Below, piece by piece: positions 3,546 to 19,510 of a stretch of DNA of 64,000 nt (position 1 is its first letter; each line of letters opens with the position of its first letter). The DNA is taken from the NCBI RefSeq assembly GCF_000974805.1, contig NZ_BBQZ01000002.1, forward strand, positions 499,510 to 563,509. Direction: 5' to 3'. The position numbers were made by a program, and so were the translations under genes. The stretch is from Demequina salsinemoris (GTDB lineage Bacteria > Actinomycetota > Actinomycetes > Actinomycetales > Demequinaceae). The notes under the pieces are model-generated. The model worked only from the letters and a program-made list of their open reading frames with translations, was not told the origin of the DNA and did no database searches.

Positions 3546-6500
3546 TCAGAGGGCGTCCGCGATCCTCCTGGCGGCCTCGAACGGAGTCCCATAGCGGTGC
3601 GCCGTGATCGACACGGCCTGCTCGCGCAGGTACGGCGTGAGCTCGAGATGCGGGCTCGCAGTCACCGCGTGGTCGAACACCGACACCACGGTGTTGCCCA
3701 CGAGGCGGCCCACGGCGCGCACGCGCGTGCCCTGGTGGGCGGACGCGCGCATCACGCACATCGCGTCGTCCTCGAGGCGAAGCTCGATGTCGAGCTCGTC
3801 GAGCGCGAGGGCGAGCGGCCCCGGCAGCGGGATCGGCGCGGACACCACGCCCTCTCCCCTGGTGACGAAGTGCGCCGCGCAGGCTCGGATCAGGTCGTCC
3901 GTCGGCGCCTGGCCGTCCCAACGGATGTCCACCTCGGCCGGAACGTAGCGCAGCGCATCGACCTCGCACGCGAGACCGCTGCGGTCCAGCGCGGCGCCGT
4001 ACTGCGCCTCCCAGGCCTTCTCGTCGGCCGCGACCGCGGCGCGGACCCACGCGGGGGCCTGCGCCCGGTCGAGGAACGCCTTGAGACGGGGCGACGCCGG
4101 TTCGGCGTCGGCGATCTCGGTGCGCTCCCAGTCGACGAGGGCCGACAGGTAGTGCGGTCCACCCGCCTTGAACGTCGGGCCGACGACCGACCGCTTCCAG
4201 CCTCCGAAGGGCTGGCGCTGGACGATCGCGCCGGTGATGCCGCGGTTCACGTAGACGTTGCCGGCCTCGACGCGATCGAGCCAGTGCTCGACCTCGCGCG
4301 GGTCGAGCGAGTGGATGCCCGCGGTCAGGCCGTAGTCGACGGCGTTCTGCACCCGGATGGCGTCGTCGAGGTCGGCCACCGCGATGATCGACAGGACCGG
4401 GCCGAACACCTCGGTCTTGTGGAAGAACGACCCAGGACGGGTGCCCGCCTTGAGCGCGGGGCTCCAGGCGGTGCCCGACTCGTCGAGGGGCTGGGGCTCG
4501 ACCACCCAACGCTCCCCCGGCTCGAGCGTCGTGAGCGCGCGCTCGAGCTTGCCGTGCACGGGCTCGATGACCGGGCCCATCTGGGTGCGAGGGTCCGTGG
4601 CGGGACCGGCGGTGAGCGACCGCACGGCGTCCTCGAGCTGCGTGAGGAATCGGTGCGACGTCGCGACGGAACCCACCGCGATGACGAGCGAGGCCGCCGA
4701 GCACTTCTGGCCGGCGTGGCCGTAGGCCGACGCGACGATGTCACGGACCGCGAGGTCGAGGTCGGCCGAGGGGGTCACGACGACGGCGTTCTTGCCGCTG
4801 GTCTCCGCGAACAGCTTGAGATCGGGGCGGATCCTCAGGAATCGTTCCGCGGTCTCGAAGCCGCCGGTGAGGATCACCTGGTCGATCCGGGCGTCACCGA
4901 TCAGCGGCTCGCCGAGGCGCTCCGGGTCGATGTCGAGCAGGCGCAGCGCGTCGCGAGGAACGCCGGCCGCCCACATGATCTCGGCGATGACGGCTCCGCA
5001 GCGGGGCGCCTGCTCGGCGGGCTTGAGAATCACGGCGCTGCCGGTCGCGAGGGCCGCGAGCGTCGAGCCGGTCGGGATGGCCACCGGGAAGTTCCACGGC
5101 GGGGTCACGAGGGTGAGGCCGCGCGGCACGGGGCGGGCGCCCTCCCACGACTCGAGCTCGACGGCGCGCTCCGCGTAGTAGTTCGCGAAGTCGATCGCCT
5201 CGGAGACCTCGGGATCGGACTGGTCGACGGTCTTGCCGGCCTCGGCCATCATCACCTCGACGAGGTCCGCGCGGCGAGCCTCGAGGCCGAGCGCGACGGC
5301 GCGCAGGATCTCGGCGCGTGCGGGAGCGCCGAGCGCGGCCCAGGCGGGCGCGGCCGCGGCGGCATCGCCGATCACGTCTGACATGGTGTCGGCGTCCTCG
5401 ACGCGCGCCTGGGCGAGGGTCTCGACGCCCAGGGACGATGCGAGGGCGCGCTCGCGGATGTCGGCGGCCCACTCGCGGTTGGCGGCGACGGACGGGTCGG
5501 TGTCGGCCGCGTTGGCGAAGCCCTCGGCTCCCTCCGGGGCCCCCGATCGTCCTGTGCCTCGGTGCGTCTCGAGGGCCGTGTCGCCGGCGAGCCGCCAGGC
5601 GTCGCGGAAGCGCTTCTCCTCGCGCGCGAACACCTGCGGGTCCTCGTCGATCTGATACAGCGAGGACATGAAGTTCTCCTTGCTCGCGACCTCCTCGAGG
5701 CGACGGACAAGGTAGGCGAGGGCGACGTCGAACTCCTTCGGGTGCACGACGGGCGTGTAGAGCCGCAGCGAGCCCACGTCCTTCGCGACGGCCTTCGCGA
5801 CGTGCTCGCCCATGCCGAGAAGCATCTCGAAGTCGACGGCGTCGGCCACGCCTCGCTGCGTGGCGAGGAGGTGCGCGTGCGCGACGTCGAACAGGTTGTG
5901 GCCCGCGACGCCGATGCGCACCGCACGCGTGCGCTCGGCCGTGAGCGCGTAGTCGAGGAGGCGCTTGTACTGCGCGTCGGACTCGACCTTGGATCCCCAC
6001 GTGGCGAGCGGCCACCCGTGGATCTCCGAGTCGACCCTCTCCATCGACAGGTTCGCGCCCTTCACCAGGCGGATCTTGATGGGCGCGCCTCCCGCGGCCA
6101 CGCGGCGCGCCGCCCACTCCTGGAGGCTGCGCATCGCGGGCATCGAGTCGGGCAGGTAGGCCTGGAGGACGATGCCGGCGGTGATCTGGCGGAACTCCTC
6201 CTCATCGAGCAGGCGCGTGAAGACCGCCATGGTGAGGTCCAGGTCGCGGTACTCCTCCATGTCGAGGTTCACGAAGCCGCCTGCCTGCGCGGAGCGGCGC
6301 AGGAGCGGGCGGAGCGTCTCGACGATGTGGTCGACCGACTCGTCGAGCGCCCACGGGTTGTGGGGCGCGATCGCGGCCGAGACCTTGAGGGAGACGTAGT
6401 CGACGTCCTGTCGGCCGAGGAGCTCCTCGGTGCGCACCAGGCGGCGGGCGGCCTCCTGCTCGCCCAGCACGGCCTCGCCTAGGAGGTTGACGTTGAGCCG

Positions 6501-6938
6501 GTGGCCATCCTTGCGCAGGCGCGCCAGCGCGCCGCCGAGCCGCTTGGGGCTCGCATCGACGATGAGGTGGCTGACGAGGGTGCGGACGGTGAGGCGTGCG
6601 ACGCTCACGACCACGTCGGGGAGCACGTGGGAGGCGATCGAGCCGAGCGACAGCGCGCCGCGCTGCCACGGCGCGAGCCTGCCCTCGGTCTGACCCGCGA
6701 GAGTGCGCAGGCTGCGAGCCGCGACGCGCTTGTCCTCGGGCCGGATCACCTCATCCACGAACTGCGTGAGGAAGGCGAGCCCGCCGGGACGGCCGAGCAG
6801 GTCGGCGAGCATAGCCGCGGCCCCGGTGACCTTGTACTGGCGGGACGACTCGAGCCAGGTCCTGACCTGGGCGGAGACGGCGTCGGGCGTGTGGGACGCG
6901 ACGTCGTCGCTGTGCGACGAGGCGGCGGTCCGGGTCAT
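3546..6938 (-). CDS. putA: Bifunctional proline dehydrogenase / L-glutamate gamma-semialdehyde dehydrogenase
   Basis: This 1,130-residue enzyme oxidises proline to glutamate in two steps. The N-terminal FAD-dependent proline dehydrogenase barrel covers roughly residues 80-460 (for example FVNLDMEEYRDLDLT near 220). The C-terminal NAD-dependent aldehyde dehydrogenase covers roughly 520-1000. Its PPWNFPVAIP motif is near 616, the catalytic Glu is in FAETSGKNA near 709, and the nucleophilic Cys is in GHAGQKCSA near 744. There is no N-terminal DNA-binding ribbon-helix-helix, so it is not a self-repressing PutA of the enterobacterial type. The ATG at 6936-6938 is preferred because GGAGGAGTCACC precedes it; an in-frame ATG eight codons upstream lacks such a site. 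A divergent lysR gene is the likely regulator. Confidence 0.95.
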   Translation of the reverse strand: MTRTAASSHSDDVASHTPDAVSAQVRTWLESSRQYKVTGAAAMLADLLGRPGGLAFLTQFVDEVIRPEDKRVAARSLRTLAGQTEGRLAPWQRGALSLGSIASHVLPDVVVSVARLTVRTLVSHLIVDASPKRLGGALARLRKDGHRLNVNLLGEAVLGEQEAARRLVRTEELLGRQDVDYVSLKVSAAIAPHNPWALDESVDHIVETLRPLLRRSAQAGGFVNLDMEEYRDLDLTMAVFTRLLDEEEFRQITAGIVLQAYLPDSMPAMRSLQEWAARRVAAGGAPIKIRLVKGANLSMERVDSEIHGWPLATWGSKVESDAQYKRLLDYALTAERTRAVRIGVAGHNLFDVAHAHLLATQRGVADAVDFEMLLGMGEHVAKAVAKDVGSLRLYTPVVHPKEFDVALAYLVRRLEEVASKENFMSSLYQIDEDPQVFAREEKRFRDAWRLAGDTALETHRGTGRSGAPEGAEGFANAADTDPSVAANREWAADIRERALASSLGVETLAQARVEDADTMSDVIGDAAAAAPAWAALGAPARAEILRAVALGLEARRADLVEVMMAEAGKTVDQSDPEVSEAIDFANYYAERAVELESWEGARPVPRGLTLVTPPWNFPVAIPTGSTLAALATGSAVILKPAEQAPRCGAVIAEIMWAAGVPRDALRLLDIDPERLGEPLIGDARIDQVILTGGFETAERFLRIRPDLKLFAETSGKNAVVVTPSADLDLAVRDIVASAYGHAGQKCSAASLVIAVGSVATSHRFLTQLEDAVRSLTAGPATDPRTQMGPVIEPVHGKLERALTTLEPGERWVVEPQPLDESGTAWSPALKAGTRPGSFFHKTEVFGPVLSIIAVADLDDAIRVQNAVDYGLTAGIHSLDPREVEHWLDRVEAGNVYVNRGITGAIVQRQPFGGWKRSVVGPTFKAGGPHYLSALVDWERTEIADAEPASPRLKAFLDRAQAPAWVRAAVAADEKAWEAQYGAALDRSGLACEVDALRYVPAEVDIRWDGQAPTDDLIRACAAHFVTRGEGVVSAPIPLPGPLALALDELDIELRLEDDAMCVMRASAHQGTRVRAVGRLVGNTVVSVFDHAVTASPHLELTPYLREQAVSITAHRYGTPFEAARRIADAL

Positions 6939-6997
6939 GGTGACTCCTCCAGATACATCCATGCCGACAGTGTGAGGTCGACTTCAGTTCAGCACCA

Positions 6998-7043: not shown

Positions 7044-7985
7044 ATGCTCGATCCGACCCGCCTCGCGATGCTCCGCGAGTTCGCGCACCGCGGCACGATC
7101 GCCGCGGCCGCGGAGGCCATGGGATACACCCCCTCCGCCGTGTCGCAGCAGCTCGCCGCCCTCGAGCGCGAGGCCGGCATCCCGCTCACCACGCGGACCG
7201 GCAGGCGCCTCCGCCTGACGCCTGCAGGCGTGCGGCTCGTGGCGCGCGCCGAGGACATCCTCGCCGCGATGGACCTCGCCGAGGCGGAGCTCAAGGACTC
7301 GGATACGGAGCCGTCGGGGACGGTGCGCCTCGCGGTGTTCCAGTCGGCGGCGCTCGCGCTCGTGCCAGGGGCGCTGCTCGCGCTTCGGGACGCCCATCCC
7401 AGGGTGCGCGTCCACGTCACCCAGTCCGAACCGGGCGCCGCCCTCGCCGAGACCTGGACGCGAGACTTCGACATCGTCGTGGCCGAGGAGTACCCCCACC
7501 ACTCCGCCCCTCACTACCCGGACATGGTCCGCCGGCCCCTCCTGGTCGACGAGATCCGGCTGTGCGTGGGAGGCGCCTGGTCCGACGCGACGCGCCTCTC
7601 GGCCGTCGCGCAGGCCCCCTGGGTGATGGAGCCTCGCGGGACCGCGACGCGCCACTTCGCCGAGCAGGCGTGCAGGGTGGCCGGCTTCGAGCCCGACATC
7701 CGCTTCGAGTCCGCGGACCTGCAGGCACATGCCGCCTACATCGCCGAGGGATTGGCGGTCGGCCTGCTGCCGGGGCTGATGTGGACGCGGCCGGGGTTCG
7801 GCGCGGCGGCCCGCGCCCTCGCCCCGGCCGCGCACCGCACGGTCTTCACCGCCGCGCGCGAGATCTCCGCCGCGGACCCCGCGGTGCTCGCGGTGCGGGA
7901 CGCGCTCGAGACCGCGGCTCACGGCGTCGACCTCCGGGCGGAGGCGCATGACGTCACTCCTGAAGAGTCGCGCTCTCAAGGCTGA
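7044..7985 (+). CDS. LysR-family transcriptional regulator, probable putA regulator
   Basis: This 313-residue regulator has an N-terminal winged helix-turn-helix (residues 1-60, with AAAEAMGYTPSAVSQQLAAL) and a LysR substrate-binding domain (about 90-295). It is divergent from putA with one T-N11-A box between them, so it probably senses proline or a product and controls putA as well as itself. No ribosome binding site precedes the ATG, so a leaderless start is possible. Its 3' end overlaps the convergent osmC gene by 32 bases. Confidence 0.88.
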   Translation: MLDPTRLAMLREFAHRGTIAAAAEAMGYTPSAVSQQLAALEREAGIPLTTRTGRRLRLTPAGVRLVARAEDILAAMDLAEAELKDSDTEPSGTVRLAVFQSAALALVPGALLALRDAHPRVRVHVTQSEPGAALAETWTRDFDIVVAEEYPHHSAPHYPDMVRRPLLVDEIRLCVGGAWSDATRLSAVAQAPWVMEPRGTATRHFAEQACRVAGFEPDIRFESADLQAHAAYIAEGLAVGLLPGLMWTRPGFGAAARALAPAAHRTVFTAAREISAADPAVLAVRDALETAAHGVDLRAEAHDVTPEESRSQG

Positions 7986-8382
7986 CGTCAGTGCCCGCGA
8001 GGGCCTGCGACATCGGGCACTCGTCCTTGGCCTTCTCCGCGATCTCGGTGAAGGCGATCGGATCGAGGCCCGGCACGTGAGCATGAACCGTGAGCATGCT
8101 CCAGGTGATGCCCTCGCCGGGCACGAACTGGACCCGGGCGTCGGTCCTCATCTCGACCGGCGGGGTGCCGTTCTGCTCGAGCGCGTGTGACAGCGCCATC
8201 GCGAAGCACGCCGAGTGGGCCGCCGCGAGCAGCTCCTCAGGCGTGGTGGACGTGCCCTCACCCGTCGAGCGCTGACGCCAGTCGACCGGAAGCTCGGAGA
8301 ACACTCCGGACTCTCCACCGGTGATGCCCTTGCCGTTCGAGAGGCCACCCTGCCAGCGGGTGGTCGCCTTGCTCGTGATCAT
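7954..8382 (-). CDS. osmC: OsmC-family peroxiredoxin (organic hydroperoxide resistance)
   Basis: This 142-residue OsmC/Ohr-fold thiol peroxidase should reduce organic hydroperoxides in the cytoplasm. The two catalytic cysteines are at residue 59 (LAAAHSACFAMALSH) and residue 122 (KAKDECPMSQAL), matching the family, and GTSTTPEELLAAAHSACFAM is the typical OsmC core. It is transcribed alone from the 230-base region 8383-8612. The start is preceded by a GGAGGAGAG-type ribosome site. The OsmC rather than Ohr subtype is favoured by the overall pattern but not certain. Confidence 0.88.
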   Translation of the reverse strand: MITSKATTRWQGGLSNGKGITGGESGVFSELPVDWRQRSTGEGTSTTPEELLAAAHSACFAMALSHALEQNGTPPVEMRTDARVQFVPGEGITWSMLTVHAHVPGLDPIAFTEIAEKAKDECPMSQALAGTDVSLESATLQE

Positions 8383-8612
8383 GGTCTCTCCTCCTCTGGG
8401 ACCCGCGGGGTCGGACCCTGTTCCAGTCTTTCACCTGGGGTGTTCGACCGCCCGTCAAACCGCCCAGCGGCGCCCAACCGCGCTCGGTCGGCAGCCCCGC
8501 CTGTTTCCGACTCGTAAACTTTCGCGCCCCACTCTTGCCACATGCGTGTCACCCGGTGTTCAGTACCGGGCATTGGACGTTTGTCCAAGTTGATCATCGA
8601 GAGGCATCCCTC

Positions 8613-9395
8613 ATGCATGCAGTTCCGTCGTGCGTCGTCGTGACCGGCGCGAGCTCGGGCTTCGGCGCCGAGTTCGCGCGGCGATTCGCCCAGCGGGGCG
8701 CCGACGTCGTGCTCGTCGCGCGTCGTCGAGATCGGCTCGAGGAGCTCGCATCGCAGCTCCAGGACTCGGGTCGGGTGCGCGCCTATCCGATCGCCGTCGA
8801 CCTCGCGAAGCCCGGCGCGGTCGACGACCTCATGGACGAGCTCGCCGTGCGCGGGCTGAGGCCCGACGGCCTCGTCAACTGCGCGGGCTTCGGCATCGAC
8901 GGCCCTTTCGCCGATGCGGACCCCGCGCGCGTGACCTCCCTGGTCCAGGTCAACGTCACGGCGCTCACCGAGCTGACGCATCGTCTGCTGCCTTCGATCC
9001 TCGCCTCCGGCAGCGGGGTGCTGGTGAACGTCGCCAGCACCGCGGCGTTCCAGCCGATCCCTCAGATCGCGCTGTACGCCGCGTCGAAGGCGTACGTGCG
9101 TACGCTCACCGAGGCCATCTGGCAGGAGGCGAAGGGCTCCGGCGCGAGGATCCTCGCGCTGTGCCCCGGACCGTCTCGGACCGAGTTCTTCGCGGCCGCG
9201 GGATCGGAGCGGTTCAACGTCGGCCAGATGGTGTCCACCGACGAGGTCGTCGACGCCGCGTTCGACGCGCTCGCGCACCAGGGCGCGGGCCCCACCCGGA
9301 TCGTCGGCTGGCGCAACGCCGTCCAGGCCCATCTCCCCCGCATCGTCCCGACACGAGCGGCGCTCGCCGTCACCGCCGGGCTCACGAAGGACTGA
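8613..9395 (+). CDS. Short-chain dehydrogenase/reductase (SDR)
   Basis: This 260-residue NAD(P)-dependent oxidoreductase has the cofactor motif TGASSGFG at residues 11-18 and the active-site Tyr155/Lys159 in LYAASKAYV, with Ser in NVASTAAF upstream. It resembles the classical DltE/YqjQ-like SDRs that act on hydrophobic alcohols or ketones. The ATG at 8613 follows a GAGAGG ribosome site; an upstream in-frame ATG at 8535 would add 26 unlikely residues. It is the first gene of a tight operon (3 bases to tetR) with an SCP2-like protein, an aminotransferase and an exporter. It may therefore interconvert alcohol and ketone before or after transamination; this is inference. Confidence 0.82.
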   Translation: MHAVPSCVVVTGASSGFGAEFARRFAQRGADVVLVARRRDRLEELASQLQDSGRVRAYPIAVDLAKPGAVDDLMDELAVRGLRPDGLVNCAGFGIDGPFADADPARVTSLVQVNVTALTELTHRLLPSILASGSGVLVNVASTAAFQPIPQIALYAASKAYVRTLTEAIWQEAKGSGARILALCPGPSRTEFFAAAGSERFNVGQMVSTDEVVDAAFDALAHQGAGPTRIVGWRNAVQAHLPRIVPTRAALAVTAGLTKD

Positions 9396-9398
9396 CCC

Positions 9399-10004
9399 AT
9401 GGCACGCATCCCCCTCGAGGAGCGACGCCGGCTGCTCATCGCGGCGACGCTCACCGTGATCGAGCGCGACGGCATCGCCGGCGCGACCGCGCGCCGCATC
9501 GTCCAGCAGGCGGACATGCCCCTCGGCGCCCTGCACTACGCCTTCGAGAACGTCGAGGACCTCCTCGCGGCGGCCGCCGACGCGGTCACCGACAACGAGC
9601 GGCTCGCCGCCGAGCGAGGACTCGCCGAGGGCGGCGCCGCCCCGGATCTCACGGACCTGCTCGTCGCGGGCATGGAGCGCTACGTCGACCTGCTCAAGGC
9701 GCGCCCCGGTCACGAGCTCGCCTTCCTCGAGCTCATGCTGCACTCGTCGAGGGCGCGACTCGACGCGCCGCCCGCACCCGGCCGCTACGAGGCGTCCTAC
9801 GAGGTCGTCGCCGCACTGCTCGCGCAGGCCGCGGATGCCGCCGGCGCGGCGTGGACCCGTCCCGTGCGCGAGCTCGCGCGCCACACCGTCTCGACGCTCG
9901 ACGGCATCACGACCACCTGGCTCGCCGACCACGACGACGCGGCCGCCCTCGCGACCGCCCGCTTCCACGCCCACGCGCTCACCGCGCTGACCACACCCGC
10001 CTAG
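9399..10004 (+). CDS. TetR-family transcriptional regulator
   Basis: This 201-residue regulator has an N-terminal helix-turn-helix (about residues 25-50: GATARRIVQQADMPLGALHY) and an all-helical ligand domain. It is embedded in the operon, starting 3 bases after the SDR gene and ending 16 bases before the next gene, so it is probably the autoregulator of this pathway. No operator was clearly identified in the 230-base region upstream of the SDR gene. Confidence 0.85.
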   Translation: MARIPLEERRRLLIAATLTVIERDGIAGATARRIVQQADMPLGALHYAFENVEDLLAAAADAVTDNERLAAERGLAEGGAAPDLTDLLVAGMERYVDLLKARPGHELAFLELMLHSSRARLDAPPAPGRYEASYEVVAALLAQAADAAGAAWTRPVRELARHTVSTLDGITTTWLADHDDAAALATARFHAHALTALTTPA

Positions 10005-10020
10005 CCGCAAGGAGTCCACG

Positions 10021-10797
10021 TTGCTCACCGATCTCAACCCTCGCGTGACCGCGCACATCAACGCGCACGCGGTGCTCGGGGCCCTGCCCGTGCTCGTCGC
10101 GCGCGTGCCCGAGGCACGCGCCGCGCTCGCCGGCCTCGACCGGCCCACGACCGTCACCCTCAAGGCTCCCGGCGTCGCCGACGCCTCCTACACCTTCACG
10201 ACGGATGCCGTCGTCCCCGGTGCTCAGGACGGCGCGCGCCGGGTGACGCTCGTGTTCACCTCGCCCAAGCACCTCAACCGGATGGTGGACGGCGAGGCGC
10301 AGCCGCTCCCGGTCGCCTCGCCCGCAGGACTGAAGTTCCTCACCGGGCCGTTCTCGACGCTGGCCGACCTGCTCGGGACCTACCTGCGCCCCGCGGACGA
10401 GGCGCTCGCGGACCCCGAGTTCAAGACGACCTCGACCCTGATGACCCTCAACGTCGCGGCGGCCGCGATCGCCCAGGTCGCGAACGAGGACCGCTCGGGC
10501 CGCTTCTCCGCCTCGATGGTCCCCGACGGGCAGGTCGCGCTCGAGGTGGGCGACGACATCGACCTGCGCCTTCACGTCGAGGACAACGTCTTCACCTTCG
10601 TTCCCGGCACCCCGACGGCCCCCGCCCGCGCCGCGCTGCGCTTCGCGGACCTCGACGTCGCGGGCGACGTGCTCGCGGGCCGCGCTTCGGCGCTGGGCTC
10701 CATCTGCGACGGAACGCTCGGCATGCGGGGCTACATCCCGATGCTCGACAACGTCAGCCGCATCCTCGACCGCGTCGGCCACTACCTCGGAGACTGA
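10021..10797 (+). CDS. Hypothetical protein with SCP2-like lipid-binding features
   Basis: This 258-residue soluble protein starts at a TTG preceded by AAGGAG. It has no confident family assignment. Two segments resemble the SCP2 sterol-carrier pattern of a beta strand followed by a helix with L-x-G. The first is near residue 80 (VTLVFTSPKHLNRMVDGEA), and the second is near residue 200 (ALRFADLDVAGDVLAGRA), ending in GTLGMRGYIPMLDN. A tandem SCP2-like fold would make it a carrier of a hydrophobic metabolite. It sits 2 bases before the aminotransferase gene, so the two products probably work together. The gene is surely real; its function is inferred weakly. Confidence 0.7.
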   Translation: MLTDLNPRVTAHINAHAVLGALPVLVARVPEARAALAGLDRPTTVTLKAPGVADASYTFTTDAVVPGAQDGARRVTLVFTSPKHLNRMVDGEAQPLPVASPAGLKFLTGPFSTLADLLGTYLRPADEALADPEFKTTSTLMTLNVAAAAIAQVANEDRSGRFSASMVPDGQVALEVGDDIDLRLHVEDNVFTFVPGTPTAPARAALRFADLDVAGDVLAGRASALGSICDGTLGMRGYIPMLDNVSRILDRVGHYLGD

Positions 10798-10799
10798 TC

Positions 10800-12062
10800 A
10801 TGACCACCACCCCCATCGCCCCCTTCACCTACGCCAAGTCCTTCGAGGCCTTCGACCGCGCCGCGAAGGTCATCCCCGCCGGCGTCCCCGGACACCTCGG
10901 CCCCTCCGAGGGCTGCTTCATCCCGAACAAGGCGTTCCCGCGCTTCTCCTCGCGAGCCGAGGGCTCGCGCTTCTGGGACCTCGACGGCAACGAGTACCTC
11001 GACTACATGTGCGCCTACGGGCCCAACGTGCTCGGCTACGGGGACCCCGACGTCGACGCGGCCGCCGCCGCGCAGGCCCGCATCGAGGACGTCGTCACCC
11101 TGCCCTCGACCGTCATGGTCGACCTGGCCGAGCTGCTCGTCGACACCGTGGCCTCCGCCGACTGGGCGTTCTTCGCCAAGAACGGCGGCGACACCACGAC
11201 GCTCGCGATGATGACCGCCCGCGCGCACACGCGCCGCAAGAAGATCGTCTTCGTCAAGGGCTACTACCACGGGGTCGCGCCCTGGACCCAGAAGCTCGAC
11301 TACCCGGGCGTGATCGAGGAGGACGTCGCGAACAACCTCTACGTGCCGTGGAACGACCTCGTCGCGCTCGAGGAGATGTTCGTCAAGCATGAGGGCGAGA
11401 TCGCCGCGTTCATCTCGACGCCGTACTTCCACGGCAACTTCCTCGACAACGAGCTTCCGGCGCCCGGCTACTGGCAGGGCGTGCGCGACCTGTGCGACAG
11501 GTACGGCGTCGTCCTGATCATGGACGATGTGCGCGCCGGCTGGCGCCTCGACCTCGCCGGATCCGACCACCACTACGGCATCGAGGCGGATCTCATCTGC
11601 TTCTGCAAGGCGATCGGCAACGGCTACAACCTGTCGGCGCTGTGCGGCAAGGAGGAGTTCAAGGAGTCGGTCGCCTCCCTGACCTACACCGGCTCGTACT
11701 GGATGAGCGCGGTGCCGTTCGCGGCGTCGATCGCGACGATCACCAAGCTCAAGGAGCTCGACGCGCCCGCTCTGTTCCGCACGCAGGGCGAGAAGGTCAC
11801 GACCGGACTCGTCGGGGCTGCGGCCAACCACGGCCTGAACCTCGTGGCCTCGGGCGAGCCCGCCCTGTTCTACCTGCGCCTCGCCGACGACGACTCCCTC
11901 CTCATGCACCAGGAGTGGGTCGCGGAATGCGTGCAGCGCGGCCTGTGGATCACGTCGCACCACAACCACTTCCTCAACGCGTCGCTCACCGACGCCGACA
12001 TCGACCGGACCATCGAGATCGCCGACGAGGCCTTCCGCATCGTCGCCGCCCGCCACGGCTGA
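10800..12062 (+). CDS. Class III PLP-dependent aminotransferase (glutamate-1-semialdehyde aminomutase-like)
   Basis: This 420-residue pyridoxal-phosphate enzyme has the cofactor Asp in LIMDDVRAGW (about 242) and the Schiff-base Lys270 in ICFCKAIGNGYNLSAL. The N-terminal half carries PAGVPGHLGPSEG and FAKNGGDTTTLAMMTAR, typical of glutamate-1-semialdehyde 2,1-aminomutase-like enzymes. It is unlikely to be HemL itself because it lies in a catabolic or biosynthetic-looking operon away from haem genes. With the neighbouring SDR it could convert an alcohol to an amine, or the reverse. The true substrate is unknown. Confidence 0.85.
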   Translation: MTTTPIAPFTYAKSFEAFDRAAKVIPAGVPGHLGPSEGCFIPNKAFPRFSSRAEGSRFWDLDGNEYLDYMCAYGPNVLGYGDPDVDAAAAAQARIEDVVTLPSTVMVDLAELLVDTVASADWAFFAKNGGDTTTLAMMTARAHTRRKKIVFVKGYYHGVAPWTQKLDYPGVIEEDVANNLYVPWNDLVALEEMFVKHEGEIAAFISTPYFHGNFLDNELPAPGYWQGVRDLCDRYGVVLIMDDVRAGWRLDLAGSDHHYGIEADLICFCKAIGNGYNLSALCGKEEFKESVASLTYTGSYWMSAVPFAASIATITKLKELDAPALFRTQGEKVTTGLVGAAANHGLNLVASGEPALFYLRLADDDSLLMHQEWVAECVQRGLWITSHHNHFLNASLTDADIDRTIEIADEAFRIVAARHG

Positions 12063-12091
12063 CCGCCTCCCCACCCAGCGAAGGAGTCCCC

Positions 12092-13348
12092 TTGACGACG
12101 CTCGCCCCCTCCCCCGTGTCCCAGGGCACCGAACGCCTCGGTGTCACCGCCGCCTACGTCGCGCAGGGCCTCAGCTACGCGACGGTCGTGACGGCGCTGC
12201 CGTTCTTCAAGGACCGGTACGGCATCTCCGAGGACATCGTGTCGCTCATCACGCTCACGGTCGTGATCGGCGCAGCCGCCGGATCGGTGCTCGCGGACAG
12301 GATCTCGGTGCGCTGGGGCTCCCGGGCCTCGCTGATCCTCGCGCTCGCGACCCAGGCGGTCGCCCTCGTCGCCGTGATGCTTCCCGTGCCGTTCCCGCTG
12401 TTCTGGGCCTTCTTCGGCGTCTACGGCCTGGGGCTGGGCGGCGTCGACGCGTCGGCTGCGATGCAGGCGGTGCTCGTGCAGCGGCGGATCGGACGCTCCG
12501 TGATGGGCTCGTTCTTCGCCACGGCGACGGCCGCCTCCGCGGTGGGCGCGGTGCTCATGTCCGGCGCCTCCGGCTCCTCGCTCGGCGCGGGCCTCGCGAT
12601 CGGCGTCGCGGCCGCGGTCGCCGCTTCGGTCGCCTTCGTCGGGGTGCGGATCTTCGACCGCACGCGTGAGGAGCGGGCCACGACCCCTGAGGCCAAGGCC
12701 GGGCGCGCGCCGATCCCGACGCTGGGCCTCATGCTCGTGGGCTTCGTCGTCTTCGCGGCGTTCACCGCGGACTCGACGCTCAGCACCTGGACGACGCTGT
12801 ACCTCCAGGACGAGCTCGCCGTCACCGGTTCGGTGGTCGTCCTGGGTCTCGCCTTCACCATCGCGCCGCTCGGTTACGGCACGTACCAGGTGACGACGCT
12901 CGTCAGCCGCCTGGGGTCCGACTTCGTGGTGCGCCGGTGGGGGCGCGCGCCGCTCGCGTTCGTGACCGCGATCGTCGGGGCGGTCGGGCTCGCGGCCATG
13001 GCGCTGCTGCCGAGCACGGGGACGGTCTTCGCCGGCATCGCGCTCGCCGGCCTGGGCGTCGGAGCCCTCGTGCCCCTCGCGTACTCGGCGGCCGGCGATA
13101 TCGAACCGAGTCGCTCGGACGAGATCGTGGCCCGCGTGAACCTCTTCACGTACCCCGGATCGGTCATCGGCGCCGTGGTTCCGGGGCTCGTCGCTGCTTC
13201 GATCGGTTACGGACCGTCACTCCTGGTAGCCGCCGTGTTGCTGCTCCCGGTACTTGCGGTTGTGCCCCGCTTCAGGGCTCCCACCCAGGGGATCTCTGGC
13301 GAGGCCGACAGGGCGCCGGAAGAGGCACTCGACGCCGCGACCGACTGA
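12092..13348 (+). CDS. MFS transporter
   Basis: This 418-residue membrane protein has about 12 hydrophobic segments and the major-facilitator loop motif ADRISVRWGSRASL after the second helix. The TTG start at 12092 follows AAGGAG, and the 29-base gap to the aminotransferase gene indicates co-transcription. It is probably the exporter or importer of the compound handled by the operon. The middle loop (RTREERATTPEAKAGRA) is the usual cytoplasmic loop between the two six-helix halves. Confidence 0.85.
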   Translation: MTTLAPSPVSQGTERLGVTAAYVAQGLSYATVVTALPFFKDRYGISEDIVSLITLTVVIGAAAGSVLADRISVRWGSRASLILALATQAVALVAVMLPVPFPLFWAFFGVYGLGLGGVDASAAMQAVLVQRRIGRSVMGSFFATATAASAVGAVLMSGASGSSLGAGLAIGVAAAVAASVAFVGVRIFDRTREERATTPEAKAGRAPIPTLGLMLVGFVVFAAFTADSTLSTWTTLYLQDELAVTGSVVVLGLAFTIAPLGYGTYQVTTLVSRLGSDFVVRRWGRAPLAFVTAIVGAVGLAAMALLPSTGTVFAGIALAGLGVGALVPLAYSAAGDIEPSRSDEIVARVNLFTYPGSVIGAVVPGLVAASIGYGPSLLVAAVLLLPVLAVVPRFRAPTQGISGEADRAPEEALDAATD

Positions 13349-13403: not shown

Positions 13404-14057
13404 ATGAACGAGGATCGACCCATCGGAGCCCGTGAGGCCGCACGTCGTCGTGTGAGCGGAGCGCTCGCTTCAGCAGCCAGGTCGCTCGTGGCCGAGAACG
13501 GCTATGACGACACCACCATCGAGATGATCGCGGAGCGTGCGGGAGTGTCCCGTCGCACGTTCTTCCGTCACTTCGAGACGAAGGACGCGGTGCTGCTGCA
13601 CTTCTACGACGAGCTCGGCGATCAGATCGTCGAGGCGATCGATCAGGCCGCCGACGAGCTGCCGATGCAGTTCGCGCTGAGCGAGGCGTTCCGCGTGGTC
13701 GAGCGCTTCCTGTCCGATCCGGTCGAGCACGCGTCACAGGTTGCGCTCGTGCAGATGATCTCCGAGTCCCCGCGCCTCGACGCCGCGCGCAACTACCGGC
13801 GCCGCCGCACCGTCGAGCTCGCAACCCACGCGCTCATGCGGCGCGAGCAGCGTCAGGGCCGCGAGATCAGCCGCCTCGTGGCAGGAGCGATCTCGGGCGC
13901 CACGTTCTCGTGCCTCTACGCAGCCGAGCACGAGTACCTCCGGGACCCGTCGCAGGACCCGGTGGGCCTTTTCGACGAGGCCGCAGCCGGCGTCTACGCG
14001 GCGATGACCGATTCCTACGCATTCAGGGAGCAGGAGGCGGCCGCCGCGGCGTCCTGA
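13404..14057 (+). CDS. TetR-family transcriptional regulator
   Basis: This 217-residue regulator has a helix-turn-helix at about residues 30-60 (TTIEMIAERAGVSRRTFFRHF), a mycofactocin/AcrR-like TetR type. The C-terminal domain is helical with an acidic-to-basic mix. It has its own promoter with a dyad and is followed by a strong terminator, so it is separate from the preceding MFS operon. It may nevertheless regulate that operon. Confidence 0.85.
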   Translation: MNEDRPIGAREAARRRVSGALASAARSLVAENGYDDTTIEMIAERAGVSRRTFFRHFETKDAVLLHFYDELGDQIVEAIDQAADELPMQFALSEAFRVVERFLSDPVEHASQVALVQMISESPRLDAARNYRRRRTVELATHALMRREQRQGREISRLVAGAISGATFSCLYAAEHEYLRDPSQDPVGLFDEAAAGVYAAMTDSYAFREQEAAAAAS

Positions 14058-16202: not shown

Positions 16203-16267
16203 GCCGCCCGCTCCACCCGGCGACACGCTGTCGCATTCATCACACCGTGTCACTCCATGTCACATCA

Positions 16268-16294
16268 CTGTACTAAACTGACTAGTCAGTACAG
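16268..16294. promoter_or_regulatory. TetR-type operator of the ABC-Pip-tetR operon
   Basis: A 14-base perfect palindrome ACTGACTAGTCAGT (16277-16290) is nested inside outer arms CTGTACT (16268-16274) and AGTACAG (16288-16294). It lies immediately before the AGAAGGAG ribosome site of the first gene. It is probably bound by the TetR protein encoded at the end of the operon. Confidence 0.65.
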
Positions 16295-16304
16295 AAGGAG
16301 TGAC

Positions 16305-17018
16305 ATGACCACCGAATCGACCCTCGCTCCGACGCACGATGCGCCGGCGGCGACTCCCCCCGTCCTCGACATCCGCGCCGCAGGCGTCTCGACGCGCAGG
16401 GCCTCCGTCTACGGTCCGCTCGATGCCCGCATCTCTCAGCCGATCACGCTCGTGCTCGGCGACCGCGGCTCGGGCCGCACCTCGCTGCTGCTGTCCGTCG
16501 GCGGTCGCATGCGCCTGTCGAAGGGCAGCATCCGCACCCTCGGCTACGACGTGACCAAGAATGCGCGCCGCGTCCGCAACTTCACCGCCCTGGCCGGCTT
16601 CGATGCGATCGACCGCCCCGACGGCGCCGCGCGCATCGCGGAGGTCATCCGCGAACGCCAGACCTGGCTCGCACCCTGGTACCGCCGCGTCCCCGCGCCC
16701 ACTCCCCGCATCGTCCATGACCTGCTCGCCGCCGTGTACGGCGACGTCCCCGTCCCCACCTCGGGAAGCCTCGTGCGCGACCTCACGGAAGGCCAGGAGC
16801 TGCTCCTGCGGGTCGCGCTCGCTCTCATCGAGGAGCCCCGACTCCTGCTCGTCGACGATCTCGACGACGTCAAGAACCCCGCGGAGCGCGCGAAGGTCGC
16901 CGCCCGCCTCCAGGCGATCGCCCTGAGCGGCATCGCCGTCGTCGTCGGGTCCGCCGACCCGAGGGACGCCGCGTTCTTCGACGCCGACCTCGTCGACACC
17001 GTCTCACTGTCACGCTGA
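16305..17018 (+). CDS. ABC-transporter-like ATPase domain protein
   Basis: This 237-residue protein has a Walker A variant GDRGSGRTSLL, a divergent signature region (LTEGQELLLRVALAL) and a Walker B-like LLLVDDLDDV. The N-terminal 30 residues are Ala/Pro/Thr rich. It is shorter and more divergent than transporter ATPases. Such proteins commonly accompany YhgE/Pip membrane proteins in actinobacteria and may energise them. An AGAAGGAG ribosome site supports the start at 16305. Confidence 0.75.
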   Translation: MTTESTLAPTHDAPAATPPVLDIRAAGVSTRRASVYGPLDARISQPITLVLGDRGSGRTSLLLSVGGRMRLSKGSIRTLGYDVTKNARRVRNFTALAGFDAIDRPDGAARIAEVIRERQTWLAPWYRRVPAPTPRIVHDLLAAVYGDVPVPTSGSLVRDLTEGQELLLRVALALIEEPRLLLVDDLDDVKNPAERAKVAARLQAIALSGIAVVVGSADPRDAAFFDADLVDTVSLSR

Positions 17019-17041: not shown

Positions 17042-19510
17042 ATGTCCATCCTCTCCCCCGGCACCGAGCTGTCGCGCTTCCGCTCCGGGCTGCTCCCCCG
17101 CATCGCGATCGCGGTGCTGCTGTTCATCCCGCTGATCTACGGCGCCCTGTACCTGTGGGCGTTCTGGGCCCCCACCGACAACCTCGACGAGGTCGCCGTG
17201 GCGCTCGTCAACGAGGACGAGCAGGTGACCCTCTCCGACGGCTCCGTGCTCGCCGCGGGCGACGAGGTCGTCGACGCGCTGCTCGACTCGGCCGACCTCG
17301 GCTGGGTGGTCACCGACGCGGCCGACGCCGCCGCGGGTGTGTCCGACGGCACCTACTACTTCTCCGTCACGGTCCCCGCGGACTTCTCGAGCGAGATCGC
17401 CTCCGCGGAGGGCGACAGCCCCGAGGCGGCCGATCTCGAGGTCCACTACAACGAGACCAACAGCTTCCTCGCGACCACGCTGGGCGGCTCCGCGATGCTT
17501 CAGGTGCAGGAGGCGGTCTCCGACACCATCGCCTCCGAGACCGCACTCACGCTCATCGAAGGCGTCGAGACGCTCGCCGACGGCGTCGACGACGCCGCGG
17601 ACGGCGCCTCCGAGCTGAACGACGGCACGGCCCAGGTCGCCGACGGCGCCACGGACCTCGCCGACGGGCTCGTCCAGCTCGCCGACGGCACCACCACGCT
17701 CGCGGCGGGCGCGGGCGAGCTCTTCAGCGGCTCCGTGACGCTCGCCGACGGGGCCGACACCCTCGCCGACGGCACGTCGGACCTGTCCGACGGCGCTGCC
17801 ACGCTGGCCTCCGGCGCGTCCGACCTCGCCGACGGGGCCGACACCCTCGCCGACGGCACGTCGGACCTGTCCGACGGCGCGACGACGCTGGCCTCCGGCG
17901 CATCCGACCTCGCCGACGGCGCGAGCGACCTCGCCGACGGCACCTCATCCCTAGCCTCGGGCGCCACCGCGCTGGCCGACGGCGCGAGCGACCTCGACGA
18001 CGGGCTCGCGCAGCTCGACGACGGTGCCACCACGCTCTCCACGAGCCTCGCCGCGCTCAACGCCGAGGCCCCGACGCTCGCCGCCGCGGCCGAGGACCTC
18101 TCGACCGGCGCCTCGCAGCTCTCCACGGGCGTCGCGACGATCGCGCAGCTCGCGGCCGCCTACCCCTCGATGACGCTCGCCCAGCTCGAGGCGACGCTCG
18201 CTTCGTACGACACGAGCCTGTCGGCCATCGCCTCTGGCGCGTCCGCGCTCGCCGCGGGAACCGACGAGCTGGACGCGACGGTCAACGAGACCGTCGACGC
18301 CGACACGCCTTCCCTCGTCGACGCGATCGCGCAGCTCTCGACCGGCGCGGCCACGCTGGCAGCCGGCGTCTCCGACGCCGCAGACGGCGCCGCGACGCTC
18401 GACGCAGGCGCCTCCGACCTCGCCGACGGCGCGGCTCAGGTGGACGACGGAGCCGCGACGCTCGCCGCCGGAGCGAGCACGCTCGCCGACGGCACCGCGA
18501 CGCTCGACGACGGTGCCACCCAGGTGGACGACGGAGCCACGACGCTCGCCGCGGGGGCCGACACGCTGGCCAGCGGCGCCTCCGACCTCGCCGACGGCGC
18601 CACCCAGGTCGACGAGGGCGCCACCGCGCTCGCGACCGGCGCATCGTCCCTGAGCGATGGCGCATCGCAGGTGGACGACGGCGCGACCACCCTCTCGGAC
18701 GCCGCAGCGACGGCCTCCGACGGATCGGCCGAGCTCGCCGACGGAGCCCAGCAGGTCGCCGACGGCGCGTCGACGCTGTCCGTCGCGCTCAGCGAGGGCG
18801 CCGACGAGGCCCCCTCCATCACGACCGAGCAGGCGACAGCGCTCGCCGACGTCGTCGCCGATCCGGTGGTGCTCGACTCGACCACCGACAACGAGACCCA
18901 GGGCTTCGGCGAGGGCTTCGCGCCCTTCTTCATCGCGCTGGCCACGTTCGTCGGGGCGCTCATCACCTGGCTGATCCTGCGCCCGCTGCCGATGCGGCTG
19001 CTCGCGACGCGCGCATCGGGCCTGCGCGCGGTGCTCACCGGCTTCGTCCCGGCCGCGCTGCTCGGCCTGGGCCAGACGATCATCATGATGCTCGTCCTCG
19101 TGATCGGCATCGGCGTCACGCCCGTCCACCTCCTCGGCATGACGCTGTTCGTGCTCCTCACCACGCTCGCCTTCATGGCGCTCCAGCAGATGTTCGTCAT
19201 CATGCTCGGGTCCGCGGCGGGCCGCGTCGTGAGCCTCGTGCTCCTGATGCTCCAGCTGTCCTCCTCGAGCGGGACCTACCCCGTCGAGACCTCGCCCTCG
19301 TTCTTCCAGGCGCTGCACCCGTACATGCCCGCGTCGTACGTGGTCACCGGGCTCCGCGCCCTGCTCGGCGGCGGGATCGACGCGCGCTTCTGGGCGGCGC
19401 TCGCCTATATGGTGGGCCTGCTGGTGGTGTCGATCACGGTGAGCGCGTTCGCGGCCGGTCGTCAGAAGGTGTGGACGATCGCCCGACTGCACCCCGAGCT
19501 GACGATCTGA
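17042..19510 (+). CDS. YhgE/Pip-family membrane protein with heptad-like repeats
   Basis: This 822-residue protein has one N-terminal membrane helix (about residues 15-38), a long extracytoplasmic region, and five or six C-terminal helices (about 625-805) like ABC-2 permeases. The extracytoplasmic region, roughly residues 175-590, is built of imperfect seven-residue LADGAxx units (often S/T-L-A-D/S-G-A). These are characteristic of YhgE/Pip (phage-infection) proteins, and relatives anchor type VII secretion or act as export permeases. Two neighbouring 84-base blocks are nearly identical (see the repeat entry). The gene lies between its ATPase partner and a TetR gene. Confidence 0.88.
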   Translation: MSILSPGTELSRFRSGLLPRIAIAVLLFIPLIYGALYLWAFWAPTDNLDEVAVALVNEDEQVTLSDGSVLAAGDEVVDALLDSADLGWVVTDAADAAAGVSDGTYYFSVTVPADFSSEIASAEGDSPEAADLEVHYNETNSFLATTLGGSAMLQVQEAVSDTIASETALTLIEGVETLADGVDDAADGASELNDGTAQVADGATDLADGLVQLADGTTTLAAGAGELFSGSVTLADGADTLADGTSDLSDGAATLASGASDLADGADTLADGTSDLSDGATTLASGASDLADGASDLADGTSSLASGATALADGASDLDDGLAQLDDGATTLSTSLAALNAEAPTLAAAAEDLSTGASQLSTGVATIAQLAAAYPSMTLAQLEATLASYDTSLSAIASGASALAAGTDELDATVNETVDADTPSLVDAIAQLSTGAATLAAGVSDAADGAATLDAGASDLADGAAQVDDGAATLAAGASTLADGTATLDDGATQVDDGATTLAAGADTLASGASDLADGATQVDEGATALATGASSLSDGASQVDDGATTLSDAAATASDGSAELADGAQQVADGASTLSVALSEGADEAPSITTEQATALADVVADPVVLDSTTDNETQGFGEGFAPFFIALATFVGALITWLILRPLPMRLLATRASGLRAVLTGFVPAALLGLGQTIIMMLVLVIGIGVTPVHLLGMTLFVLLTTLAFMALQQMFVIMLGSAAGRVVSLVLLMLQLSSSSGTYPVETSPSFFQALHPYMPASYVVTGLRALLGGGIDARFWAALAYMVGLLVVSITVSAFAAGRQKVWTIARLHPELTI
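17741..17908. repeat. Two tandem 84-bp copies inside the Pip gene
   Basis: The blocks 17741-17824 and 17825-17908 are nearly identical at the DNA level and each encode 28 residues (four heptads). The DNA identity is much higher than between the other heptads, which indicates a recent in-frame duplication. Confidence 0.85.

What the first reader, a model, noticed from the sequence alone, without database searches (positions are those of the whole stretch)
8613..13348. Undescribed-looking operon: SDR, TetR, SCP2-like protein, aminotransferase, MFS exporter
Five genes run in one direction with gaps of 3, 16, 2 and 29 bases. An SDR plus a class III aminotransferase can interconvert alcohol, ketone and amine. 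The lipid-carrier-like protein would present a hydrophobic substrate, and the MFS would export or import it. I know no named pathway with this order, so the operon may make or break a hydrophobic amino compound.
Basis: inference. Interest (0 to 1): 0.6.

Follow-up and report, generated by a model that had tools for sequence, protein, structure and literature searches.

The report
Lipid-amine operon with lipid carrier
A five-gene bacterial operon pairs an aminotransferase with a protein shaped like a fat carrier; the same pair recurs in distant gut and soil bacteria, often beside a re-tooled transketolase, which points to an undescribed way of breaking down (or making) sphingosine-like lipid amines.

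Summary
The operon is real: SDR, TetR, 258-aa protein, class III aminotransferase (AT) and MFS, gaps 3, 16, 2 and 29 bases, with an operator-like palindrome at 8573-8588. The 258-aa protein has no Pfam hit; its AlphaFold model (pLDDT 94) has the SCP2 lipid-carrier fold. The AT is not HemL. Its closest solved relative is FumI (41% identical), which deaminates the sphingoid-like hydrolysed fumonisin. The carrier gene lies directly upstream of the AT in 79 of 80 related loci, in Actinobacteria, Clostridia and Spirochaetes. In 39 of the 80 the pair is joined by a split transketolase, in 32 also by a second SCP2-like protein. That transketolase keeps its catalytic histidines but has lost three residues (E. 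coli R91, R358, D469) at the substrate site. The window-type ATs are one clade nested among transketolase-linked ATs. Best reading: the AT interconverts a 2-amino and a 2-keto group on a long-chain, sphingoid-like lipid; the ketone is split by transketolase in the anaerobes, or handled by the SDR and exported in the window's lineage. Substrate, direction and the carrier's role are inferred. My paper searches (capped listings) showed no description of it.

The parts
8573..8588 (.). operator-like palindrome TTGGACGTTTGTCCAA, probable site of the operon's own TetR
   Evidence: only match in the window at up to 1 mismatch; 0 in 100 shuffles; degenerate form near the first gene of 23 of 34 operons of this type (window included), 2 elsewhere in 649,562 bases of these loci, and in 0 of 39 transketolase-linked loci over the 1.8 kb before the AT; the only perfect site in the whole genome
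8613..9395 (+). short-chain dehydrogenase/reductase (260 aa); best NCBIfam neighbour mycolate reductase, below cut-off
   Evidence: PF00106 5.7e-46; NF040690 154.8 bits vs cut-off 380; PDB 4bmv 1.5e-35
9399..10004 (+). TetR-family regulator (201 aa)
   Evidence: TetR_N 6.9e-6; PDB 2dg8 2.1e-8 and MtrR (6of0) 7e-7 over residues 7-178
10021..10797 (+). 258-aa SCP2-fold protein, apparently two related halves; presumed lipid carrier
   Evidence: no Pfam or NCBIfam hit; AlphaFold pLDDT 94.4, pTM 0.90; Foldseek 1wfr 3.1e-4, UbiJ-SCP2 6.2e-4; VIA Z 11.6, 2.6 A over 107 residues of the C-terminal half to 3bdq; halves align by hhalign, prob 88.5
10800..12062 (+). class III (HemL/FumI-like) PLP aminotransferase (420 aa); invariant Lys270, aligned with FumI's
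   Evidence: PF00202 1.5e-36; PDB 6hbs FumI 2.2e-95 vs best HemL 3bs8 2.8e-46; Lys270 in all 80 family rows; 40.8% identical to FumI, 26.7% to the genome's own hemL-like protein
12092..13348 (+). MFS transporter (418 aa), presumed exporter
   Evidence: MFS_1 9.8e-26; no PDB relative at E 0.01
13404..14057 (+). second TetR gene, 55 bases downstream; doubtful member
   Evidence: TetR_N 1.1e-15; MftR-like 77.6 bits vs cut-off 224.9; its cluster was seen beside the operon only in the window, L022 and L023

Best explanation
This is the actinobacterial branch of a patchily distributed, apparently undescribed lipid-amine pathway. The aminotransferase interconverts the C2 amino group and a C2 ketone on a long-chain, sphingoid-like 2-amino alcohol, as FumI does on hydrolysed fumonisin. 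The SCP2-fold protein is presumed to hold the hydrophobic substrate or product for it. In the transketolase-linked form, the resulting 1,3-dihydroxy-2-ketone is a ketol that a modified split transketolase can cleave between C2 and C3, giving a fatty aldehyde and passing the two-carbon unit to a sugar phosphate; a second SCP2-fold protein would hold the aldehyde. In the window's form no transketolase lies beside the genes: the SDR would reduce (or oxidise) the hydroxy-ketone and the MFS would export product or substrate, under a local TetR that binds the palindrome upstream and is released by the substrate. I judge breakdown or detoxification more likely than synthesis. Shown: gene content, conservation, predicted fold, active-site changes, nesting of the clade, the repeat upstream. 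Inferred: substrate, direction, transport direction, TetR binding and ligand, and the carrier's partners.
For: AT closest to FumI among solved chains; FumI transfers the 2-amino group of HFB1 to pyruvate (PMC2933618, passages). Many columns at least 95% conserved in the family match FumI and not the genome's hemL-like protein, including H388-N389, while the Arg of that protein aligned at column 34 is Gly. Carrier gene directly upstream of AT in 79 of 80 loci. SCP2 fold of the carrier model and of the second carrier model; the two are homologous (hhalign prob 97, E 4e-11). Split transketolase in 39 of 80 loci; in 32 with both halves and the second carrier, the other 7 being cut by the contig end; and in 8 of 11 further loci, in seven of which the AT is only 46-57% identical. 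E. coli D469-equivalent is Ala in 32 of 32 plus 8 of 8; R91-equivalent is Asn in 38 of 38 plus 8 of 8; R358-equivalent lost in 31 of 32 plus 8 of 8. Paralogous split transketolases (41-45% identical) in the same genomes mostly keep them: D in 11 of 12, R358 in 12 of 12, R91 in 11 of 13 N-halves. Engineered D469T lets E. coli transketolase take aromatic aldehydes that the wild type refuses (PMC5073344, passages). Split transketolases have catabolic roles in gut Firmicutes, proposed for DesAB on cortisol (PMC3735941) and described for SqwGH on sulfofructose (PMC11659671). Window-type ATs form one clade (21 rows, SH-aLRT 97) nested among transketolase-linked ATs. TetR gene plus conserved repeat.
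Against: No activity has been measured on any member, as far as I found. FumI identity is only 41%; the three newer HFB1 transaminases share 61-74% with the two known ones, so a different substrate is possible. SCP2-fold proteins bind many ligands (general knowledge). The transketolase keeps three residues recalled as phosphate contacts (S385 in 31 of 32, H461 and R520 in 32 of 32), as expected for a sugar-phosphate partner, but D469A should also weaken sugar binding. R358 loss is not specific: five distant full-length relatives (26-30% identical, L125-L129) have Thr there, and the Treponema copy and two unlinked copies (59%) keep Arg. Ceramidase PF04734 was found in 0 of 47 family genomes (none of its 14 controls rang, so this is weak). 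An aldehyde dehydrogenase was noticed beside only one locus (L174). AT orthologues are rare: 0 of 395 other Actinomycetota genomes drawn. 8 of 80 loci have the pair with neither partner set.
Confidence: 0.5

Rival explanations
1. Synthesis, not breakdown: in the clostridial form the transketolase adds a two-carbon ketol to a fatty aldehyde, and the AT aminates the product to a sphinganine-type base without serine palmitoyltransferase. In the window the SDR makes the ketone and the MFS exports the amine.
For: The same genes and chemistry run in reverse. D469 loss suits an aldehyde without an alpha-hydroxyl (role of D469 recalled). Two carrier proteins could channel intermediates. A polyketide-linked, still serine-dependent sphinganine route is known, so bacterial sphingoid synthesis is more varied than the classical route (PMC12134224, passages).
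Against: None of the recurrent neighbour clusters that I named is a fatty-acid, acyl-CoA reductase or acyltransferase gene; unnamed neighbours were not all annotated. TetR, repeat and MFS look like an inducible response. The two retooled split transketolases in the papers read are catabolic.
Confidence: 0.2
2. Detoxification and efflux in Actinobacteria only: the operon protects against membrane-active sphingoid bases or fungal sphinganine-like toxins by deamination, reduction and export, with no carbon gained.
For: The TetR's PDB neighbours include the efflux repressors MtrR and EbrA; MFS directly downstream in 28 of 33 loci of this type; patchy presence, 15 of 47 family genomes with the own one counted and 0 of 395 others in the phylum draw; FumI is a mycotoxin deaminase.
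Against: A large anaerobic group uses the same AT-carrier pair with a transketolase, which looks metabolic. In four loci a hydrolase related to M19 dipeptidases, secreted by the look of its N-terminus, is linked, which suggests substrate harvesting.
Confidence: 0.2
3. Steroid or other polycyclic substrate: the SCP2 proteins carry a sterol-like compound and the split transketolase is a desmolase like DesAB, with the AT acting on a side-chain ketone.
For: DesAB is a split transketolase proposed to remove a two-carbon ketol from cortisol. SCP2 is named for sterol binding. One locus (L142) has the transketolase genes and the second carrier beside a Zn-dependent dehydrogenase, as in desABC.
Against: The AT is closest to FumI, which acts on a linear chain. 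No steroid gene was recognised among the recurrent neighbours named. I could not compare DesAB sequences.
Confidence: 0.1

Closest known systems
FumI, aminopentol (hydrolysed fumonisin B1) aminotransferase, PDB 6hbs; Sphingopyxis fum cluster
   Same: Closest solved relative (2.2e-95, 40.8% identity); falls on the family's side of a branch with SH-aLRT 100 in the tree; shares many family-conserved residues that the genome's hemL-like protein lacks
   Different: Outside the family's own groups in the tree, in a three-way fork. No SCP2-like gene beside the FumI-like paralogue seen here (L140). Window AT is far below the 61-74% identity that the newer proven HFB1 transaminases share with the known ones. 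Make-up of the fum cluster was not checked here
Glutamate-1-semialdehyde aminomutase (HemL)
   Same: Same class III fold family (TIGR00713 173 bits)
   Different: Far below cut-off 527; the Arg of the genome's hemL-like protein aligned at column 34 is Gly; the genome has that separate hemL-like gene scoring 508 bits
desABCD, steroid-17,20-desmolase operon of Clostridium scindens (PMC3735941)
   Same: Split transketolase proposed to act on a hydrophobic ketol, with a dehydrogenase and a transporter, in a gut Firmicute
   Different: No aminotransferase and no SCP2-like gene among the four genes described; DesAB sequences not compared here
Sulfo-transketolase pathway, SqwGH (PMC11659671)
   Same: Split transketolase moving a two-carbon ketol to G3P in anaerobic Firmicutes
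   Different: Acts on sulfo-sugars; no carrier or aminotransferase named in the passages read; sequences not compared
UbiJ and SCP2-domain lipid carriers
   Same: SCP2 fold, Foldseek 6.2e-4 to UbiJ, VIA Z up to 11.6 to SCP2 chains
   Different: Apparently two SCP2-like halves in one chain; no sequence match to Pfam or PDB

Membership tests
HemL (GSA aminomutase) | scores over the TIGR00713 cut-off of 527.3 bits | tested here: not met
   173.2 bits
HemL (GSA aminomutase) | Arg of the N-terminal SPVR-like motif (recalled role: substrate carboxylate) | tested here: not met
   Gly34 in 96% of 80 family rows, which hold a few stray paralogues; Arg in the genome's own hemL-like L102
FumI-type long-chain amino-alcohol aminotransferase | groups with FumI apart from HemL and other class III enzymes | tested here: met
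   53 rows with FumI on one side of a branch with SH-aLRT 100; the other side held only own-genome class III paralogues and one stray row (long branches flagged by the tool)
FumI-type long-chain amino-alcohol aminotransferase | deaminates HFB1 or a sphingoid base | not testable with these tools
   needs an enzyme assay
FumI-type long-chain amino-alcohol aminotransferase | identity to a proven HFB1 transaminase in the range of the known ones (61-74%) | tested here: not met
   40.8% to FumI; range
SCP2 lipid-carrier fold | SCP2 fold | tested here: met
   AlphaFold model, C-terminal half VIA Z 11.6, 2.6 A over 107 residues
SCP2 lipid-carrier fold | sequence match to an SCP2 Pfam family | tested here: not met
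   no Pfam family at E 0.1
SCP2 lipid-carrier fold | binds a lipid | not testable with these tools
   needs a binding assay
Transketolase (linked genes in relatives, absent near the window operon) | catalytic His and ThDP residues (E. coli H26, H66, H100, H261, E411; numbering recalled) | tested here: met
   38 of 38 N-subunits (35 of 38 for H261, the other three gapped there) and 32 of 32 C-subunits
Transketolase (linked genes in relatives, absent near the window operon) | substrate-site residues R91, R358, D469 | tested here: not met
   R91 to N 46 of 46; D469 to A 40 of 40; R358 lost in 39 of 40
DesAB steroid desmolase | sequence orthology to DesA/DesB | not tested
   no DesAB sequence at hand; the two operon-type subunits scanned matched no desmolase model among the NCBIfam hits at E 1e-5

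The most novel reading that the evidence does not exclude
A third natural chemistry for sphingoid bases, beside serine palmitoyltransferase and sphingosine-1-phosphate lyase: a FumI-like aminotransferase and a retooled split transketolase, served by two SCP2-fold carriers, run sphingoid base <-> 1,3-dihydroxy-2-ketone <-> fatty aldehyde plus a two-carbon ketol. It would be oxygen-independent and active in gut and rumen anaerobes. Actinobacteria such as the window's Demequina-like host would carry a derived version in which an SDR and an MFS took the place of the transketolase.
Probability: 0.3. Interest if true: 0.87.

Novelty: new variant of a known kind. Interest (0 to 1): 0.7.

Why it matters
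If right, gut, rumen and soil bacteria carry an unrecognised, oxygen-independent route that splits or builds sphingosine-like lipids. This would matter for dietary sphingolipid turnover, for gut signalling lipids, for fumonisin-type mycotoxins and for biocatalysis (chiral long-chain amino alcohols). It also suggests a role for a carrier family with no Pfam hit, and gives a natural example of change at the same transketolase position (D469) that engineers altered by hand.

Tried and rejected
Haem synthesis for the aminotransferase: rejected. Sequence search of the 258-aa protein: nothing in Pfam, NCBIfam or PDB by single sequence; by profile the best PDB hits were anti-sigma F at E 0.45, chance; no plasmid match. 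Ceramidase PF04734 in the family: 0 of 47, and 0 of 14 control genomes rang, so uninformative. MFS and the M19-like hydrolase against PDB: no hit. My first guess from gene lengths, an ABC transporter for the clostridial neighbours, was wrong; Pfam shows transketolase halves. Home-made gene picking missed or mis-chose genes in high-GC loci (no AT in 3 of 81 entries), so the order counts were redone by tblastn; the residue counts rest on picked genes. Other neighbour clusters of the animal-gut loci (e.g. the phosphorylase c21 and the PALP enzyme c27) recurred only in small groups of loci and were not followed. In the tree, one row labelled SDR-type (L056_15) is an unrelated class III paralogue; it causes the second 'SDR' change reported there. 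The tree used 59 of 103 collected AT rows, chosen by hand to thin near-copies; branches to FumI, L021 and the outgroup are long and were flagged, and FumI's exact place is an unresolved three-way fork. VIA-align looks only at Foldseek's top chains, so absence of other folds means nothing. The operator pattern was derived from the window and widened after seeing the same loci, so one search is a description, not an independent test; all 11 Demequina loci have it and 12 of the 23 others. From the transketolase control I leave out of the 12 the six rows below 35% identity: L124 has R358 but Ser for D469 and Tyr for H461; L125-L129 keep D469 but have Thr for R358. One search scored at most 4 candidates per genome, so a miss is possible. 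Papers: no paper held all of sphingosine, transketolase, aminotransferase, bacteria and sphingoid. The other searches listed 1 to 20 papers each, of up to 614 that matched, and none of those listed describes the system by title and abstract start. Passages only were read of PMC2933618, PMC9858248, PMC5073344, PMC7661550, PMC12134224, PMC3735941 and PMC11659671.
Full report
What is there. The window lies in a 3.21-Mb genome whose nearest named relatives are Demequina. Upstream is a divergent OsmC gene (7954-8382, minus strand), then a perfect inverted repeat TTGGACGTTTGTCCAA at 8573-8588, 24 bases before the SDR start. It is the only such site in the window (0 in 100 shuffles) and the only perfect one in the genome (at up to one mismatch there are 7 sites against 3 for the reversed pattern). 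A second TetR gene follows the MFS after 55 bases; its membership is doubtful.

The aminotransferase. Its best PDB relative is FumI, aminopentol aminotransferase, at 2.2e-95; the best HemL chain is at 2.8e-46. Identity is 40.8% to FumI, 26.7% to the genome's hemL-like protein L102 and 26.3% to a second HemL-like protein L103. L102 scores 508 bits against TIGR00713, just under the 527.3 cut-off, while the window's AT scores 171.6, so haem synthesis has another candidate. In 80 family rows (at least three of them stray paralogues), many columns at least 95% conserved agree with FumI and not with L102, for example Y73, P75, N76, W122, K127, N128, W162, R245, S299, W301, S303, P306, H388 and N389; the L102 Arg aligned at column 34 is Gly. 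FumI moves the 2-amino group of hydrolysed fumonisin B1 to pyruvate (PMC2933618, passages); fumonisins resemble sphingosine and sphinganine (PMC9858248, passages).

The 258-aa protein. No Pfam or NCBIfam family matches it. An alignment of 53 homologues gave an AlphaFold model with pLDDT 94.4 and pTM 0.90. Foldseek and VIA-align place mainly its C-terminal half (about 133-258) with SCP2 proteins, including liganded ones, UbiJ and the SCP2 domain of alkylsulfatases (VIA Z 11.6, 2.6 A over 107 residues; Foldseek 3.1e-4 for 1wfr, 6.2e-4 for UbiJ). The two halves align with each other by hhalign (prob 88.5, E 2.7e-6, local mode; 37.5 in global mode), so it looks like a duplicated SCP2 unit. That a lipid is bound follows from the fold family and is inferred.

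Conservation of the neighbourhood. By tblastn the 258-aa gene lies directly upstream of the AT in 79 of 80; the exception, L096, is a contig that begins at the AT. Of the 80, 33 are of the window's type: 19 of 33 have SDR-TetR-carrier-AT-MFS in order, 8 lack a detected SDR, 2 lack SDR and MFS, 2 lack the MFS on that strand (one has it divergent), 1 lacks TetR and 1 lacks TetR and MFS. Another 39 carry a transketolase N-half (in L069 divergent, otherwise after the AT); 32 of 39 also show the C-half and a second SCP2-like protein, and the other 7 (L050, L070, L071, L081, L085, L087, L093) are cut by the contig end. Eight have neither set. Profile searches found the carrier in 7 of 398 genomes of the phylum of G050 (G050 counted) and in 16 of 297 genomes of the window's order (the own and six of its genus counted). 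Of 11 loci fetched from these, 8 keep carrier-AT-transketolase; in seven of the 8 the AT is only 46-57% identical to the window's, in the eighth (L175) 72%. L168 and L170 show no transketolase of this kind nearby, and L176 is SDR-type. The AT itself occurs in 15 of 47 family genomes, the own counted, and in none of 395 other genomes drawn across the phylum: an accessory, patchy trait.

The transketolase partner. Its halves are most like the split transketolase of Carboxydothermus (4.2e-72 and 3.7e-79). Catalytic residues are kept. The residue recalled to meet the acceptor's alpha-hydroxyl (E. coli D469) is Ala in 32 of 32 and 8 of 8 divergent copies; R358 (recalled phosphate contact) is lost in 31 of 32 and 8 of 8; R91 is Asn in 38 of 38 and 8 of 8. 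As a control, 12 paralogous split transketolases (41-45% identical) from the same genomes keep D in 11 and R358 in 12, and 11 of 13 paralogous N-halves keep R91. Against this, S385 (31 of 32), H461 and R520 (32 of 32) are kept, so one partner may still be a sugar phosphate; the Treponema copy (L069, also fetched as L120) and two unlinked copies (L119, L121; 59% identical) keep R358; and five full-length relatives (L125-L129, 26-30%) have Thr there, so R358 loss alone is not telling. In the laboratory D469T let E. coli transketolase take aromatic aldehydes that the wild type refuses (PMC5073344, passages). The second carrier's model also has the SCP2 fold (pLDDT 92.8; VIA Z 12.0 to 8af3 for the C-half, 9.2 to 2cx7 for the N-half) and is homologous to the 258-aa protein (hhalign prob 97).

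History. In an ML tree of 59 of the 103 collected AT rows, the window-type ATs form one clade of 21 rows (SH-aLRT 97), nested among transketolase-linked ATs; FumI with a Demequina paralogue (L021) lies beside the family in a three-way fork with the L169-L171 group and all others. So a transketolase-linked ancestor, with a single switch to the SDR/TetR/MFS setting, is the simplest history. Caveats: quick search, long branches to FumI and the outgroup, one stray row.

Regulation. The pattern TTGGWCNNNNGWCCAA (one mismatch allowed) lies between 900 bases before and 60 after the start of the first gene in 23 of 34 window-type operons (window included; all 11 Demequina loci and 12 of the 23 others), against 2 sites in 649,562 bases elsewhere in these loci and 0 of 39 transketolase loci (1.8 kb before the AT). 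One of the two elsewhere overlaps the 5' end, as picked, of the M19-like hydrolase ORF in the Frankia locus L047, which hints that this hydrolase belongs to the regulon. Two Cellulomonas loci (L032, L036) have a related repeat, CTGGGTCGATCGACCCAG. The TetR's closest PDB chains are 2dg8 and, among named efflux repressors, MtrR and EbrA. Binding is not shown.

Mechanism. A 2-amino-1,3-diol lipid deaminated at C2 becomes R-CH(OH)-CO-CH2OH, which is the donor ketol of a transketolase; cleavage gives R-CHO and a two-carbon unit. C4 of sphinganine bears no hydroxyl, which fits D469 to Ala. This is chemical inference. Precedents for split transketolases on odd ketols in gut Firmicutes are DesAB on cortisol (proposed, PMC3735941) and SqwGH on sulfofructose (PMC11659671); both are catabolic, which with the TetR and MFS tips me to breakdown or detoxification. 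In the window's branch the SDR (nearest model mycolate reductase, below cut-off) would act on the hydroxy-ketone. The reverse, synthesis, uses the same parts and is not excluded.

Verdict. I found no biochemistry for any member and no description of the system in the listings (titles and abstract starts of capped lists).

Noticed in passing
L140:6648-7889 (minus), Demequina silvatica genome G023: A second, more FumI-like aminotransferase (48.7% to FumI) beside what look by eye like an oligopeptide-type ABC transporter, a TetR and an aldo-keto reductase, with no SCP2-like gene; a candidate fumonisin-type or amino-alcohol catabolic locus.
   Followed up: partly
L142:3420-7386 and L141:4738-6895: Transketolase halves plus the second SCP2-like gene as a separate locus; in L142 (Sinanaerobacter) next to a Zn-dependent dehydrogenase, a gene that looks MerR-like by eye and an amidohydrolase, reminiscent of desABC; the L141 contig ends at the carrier.
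   Followed up: partly
L033, L044, L047, L076: A hydrolase of 541-712 aa, secreted by the look of its N-terminus and weakly like M19 membrane dipeptidases (over the Pfam cut-off in three of the four), lies near the operon in four loci; in L047 the operator pattern overlaps its 5' end as picked. No PDB relative for the L033 copy.
   Followed up: partly
L172, L173, L174: A glyoxalase/VOC-like gene follows the second carrier in all three small actinobacterial genomes; in L174 an aldehyde dehydrogenase (above the PRK09407 succinic semialdehyde dehydrogenase cut-off) is divergent from the carrier gene.
   Followed up: partly
L066, L067, L072, L079, L082, L096: An extended-SDR/epimerase-like gene of 339-365 aa follows the second carrier; the L079 copy has a faint likeness to HpnA (34.8 bits against a cut-off of 367.65).
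   Followed up: no
L124 (Frondihabitans genome G062): A divergent split transketolase with Tyr, Ser and Asp at the E. coli H461, D469 and R91 positions; another retooled transketolase of unknown role.
   Followed up: no
window 17042-19510: An 822-aa protein with a long run of 'LADGASDLADG'-type repeats, after a 253-aa gene at 16257-17018 that looks like an ABC ATPase by eye; looks like a YhgE/Pip-type membrane protein (name recalled).
   Followed up: no
window 3546-6962: A 1138-aa protein on the minus strand that looks like a bifunctional proline/glutamate-semialdehyde dehydrogenase (by eye), divergent from a LysR regulator at 7044-7985.
   Followed up: no
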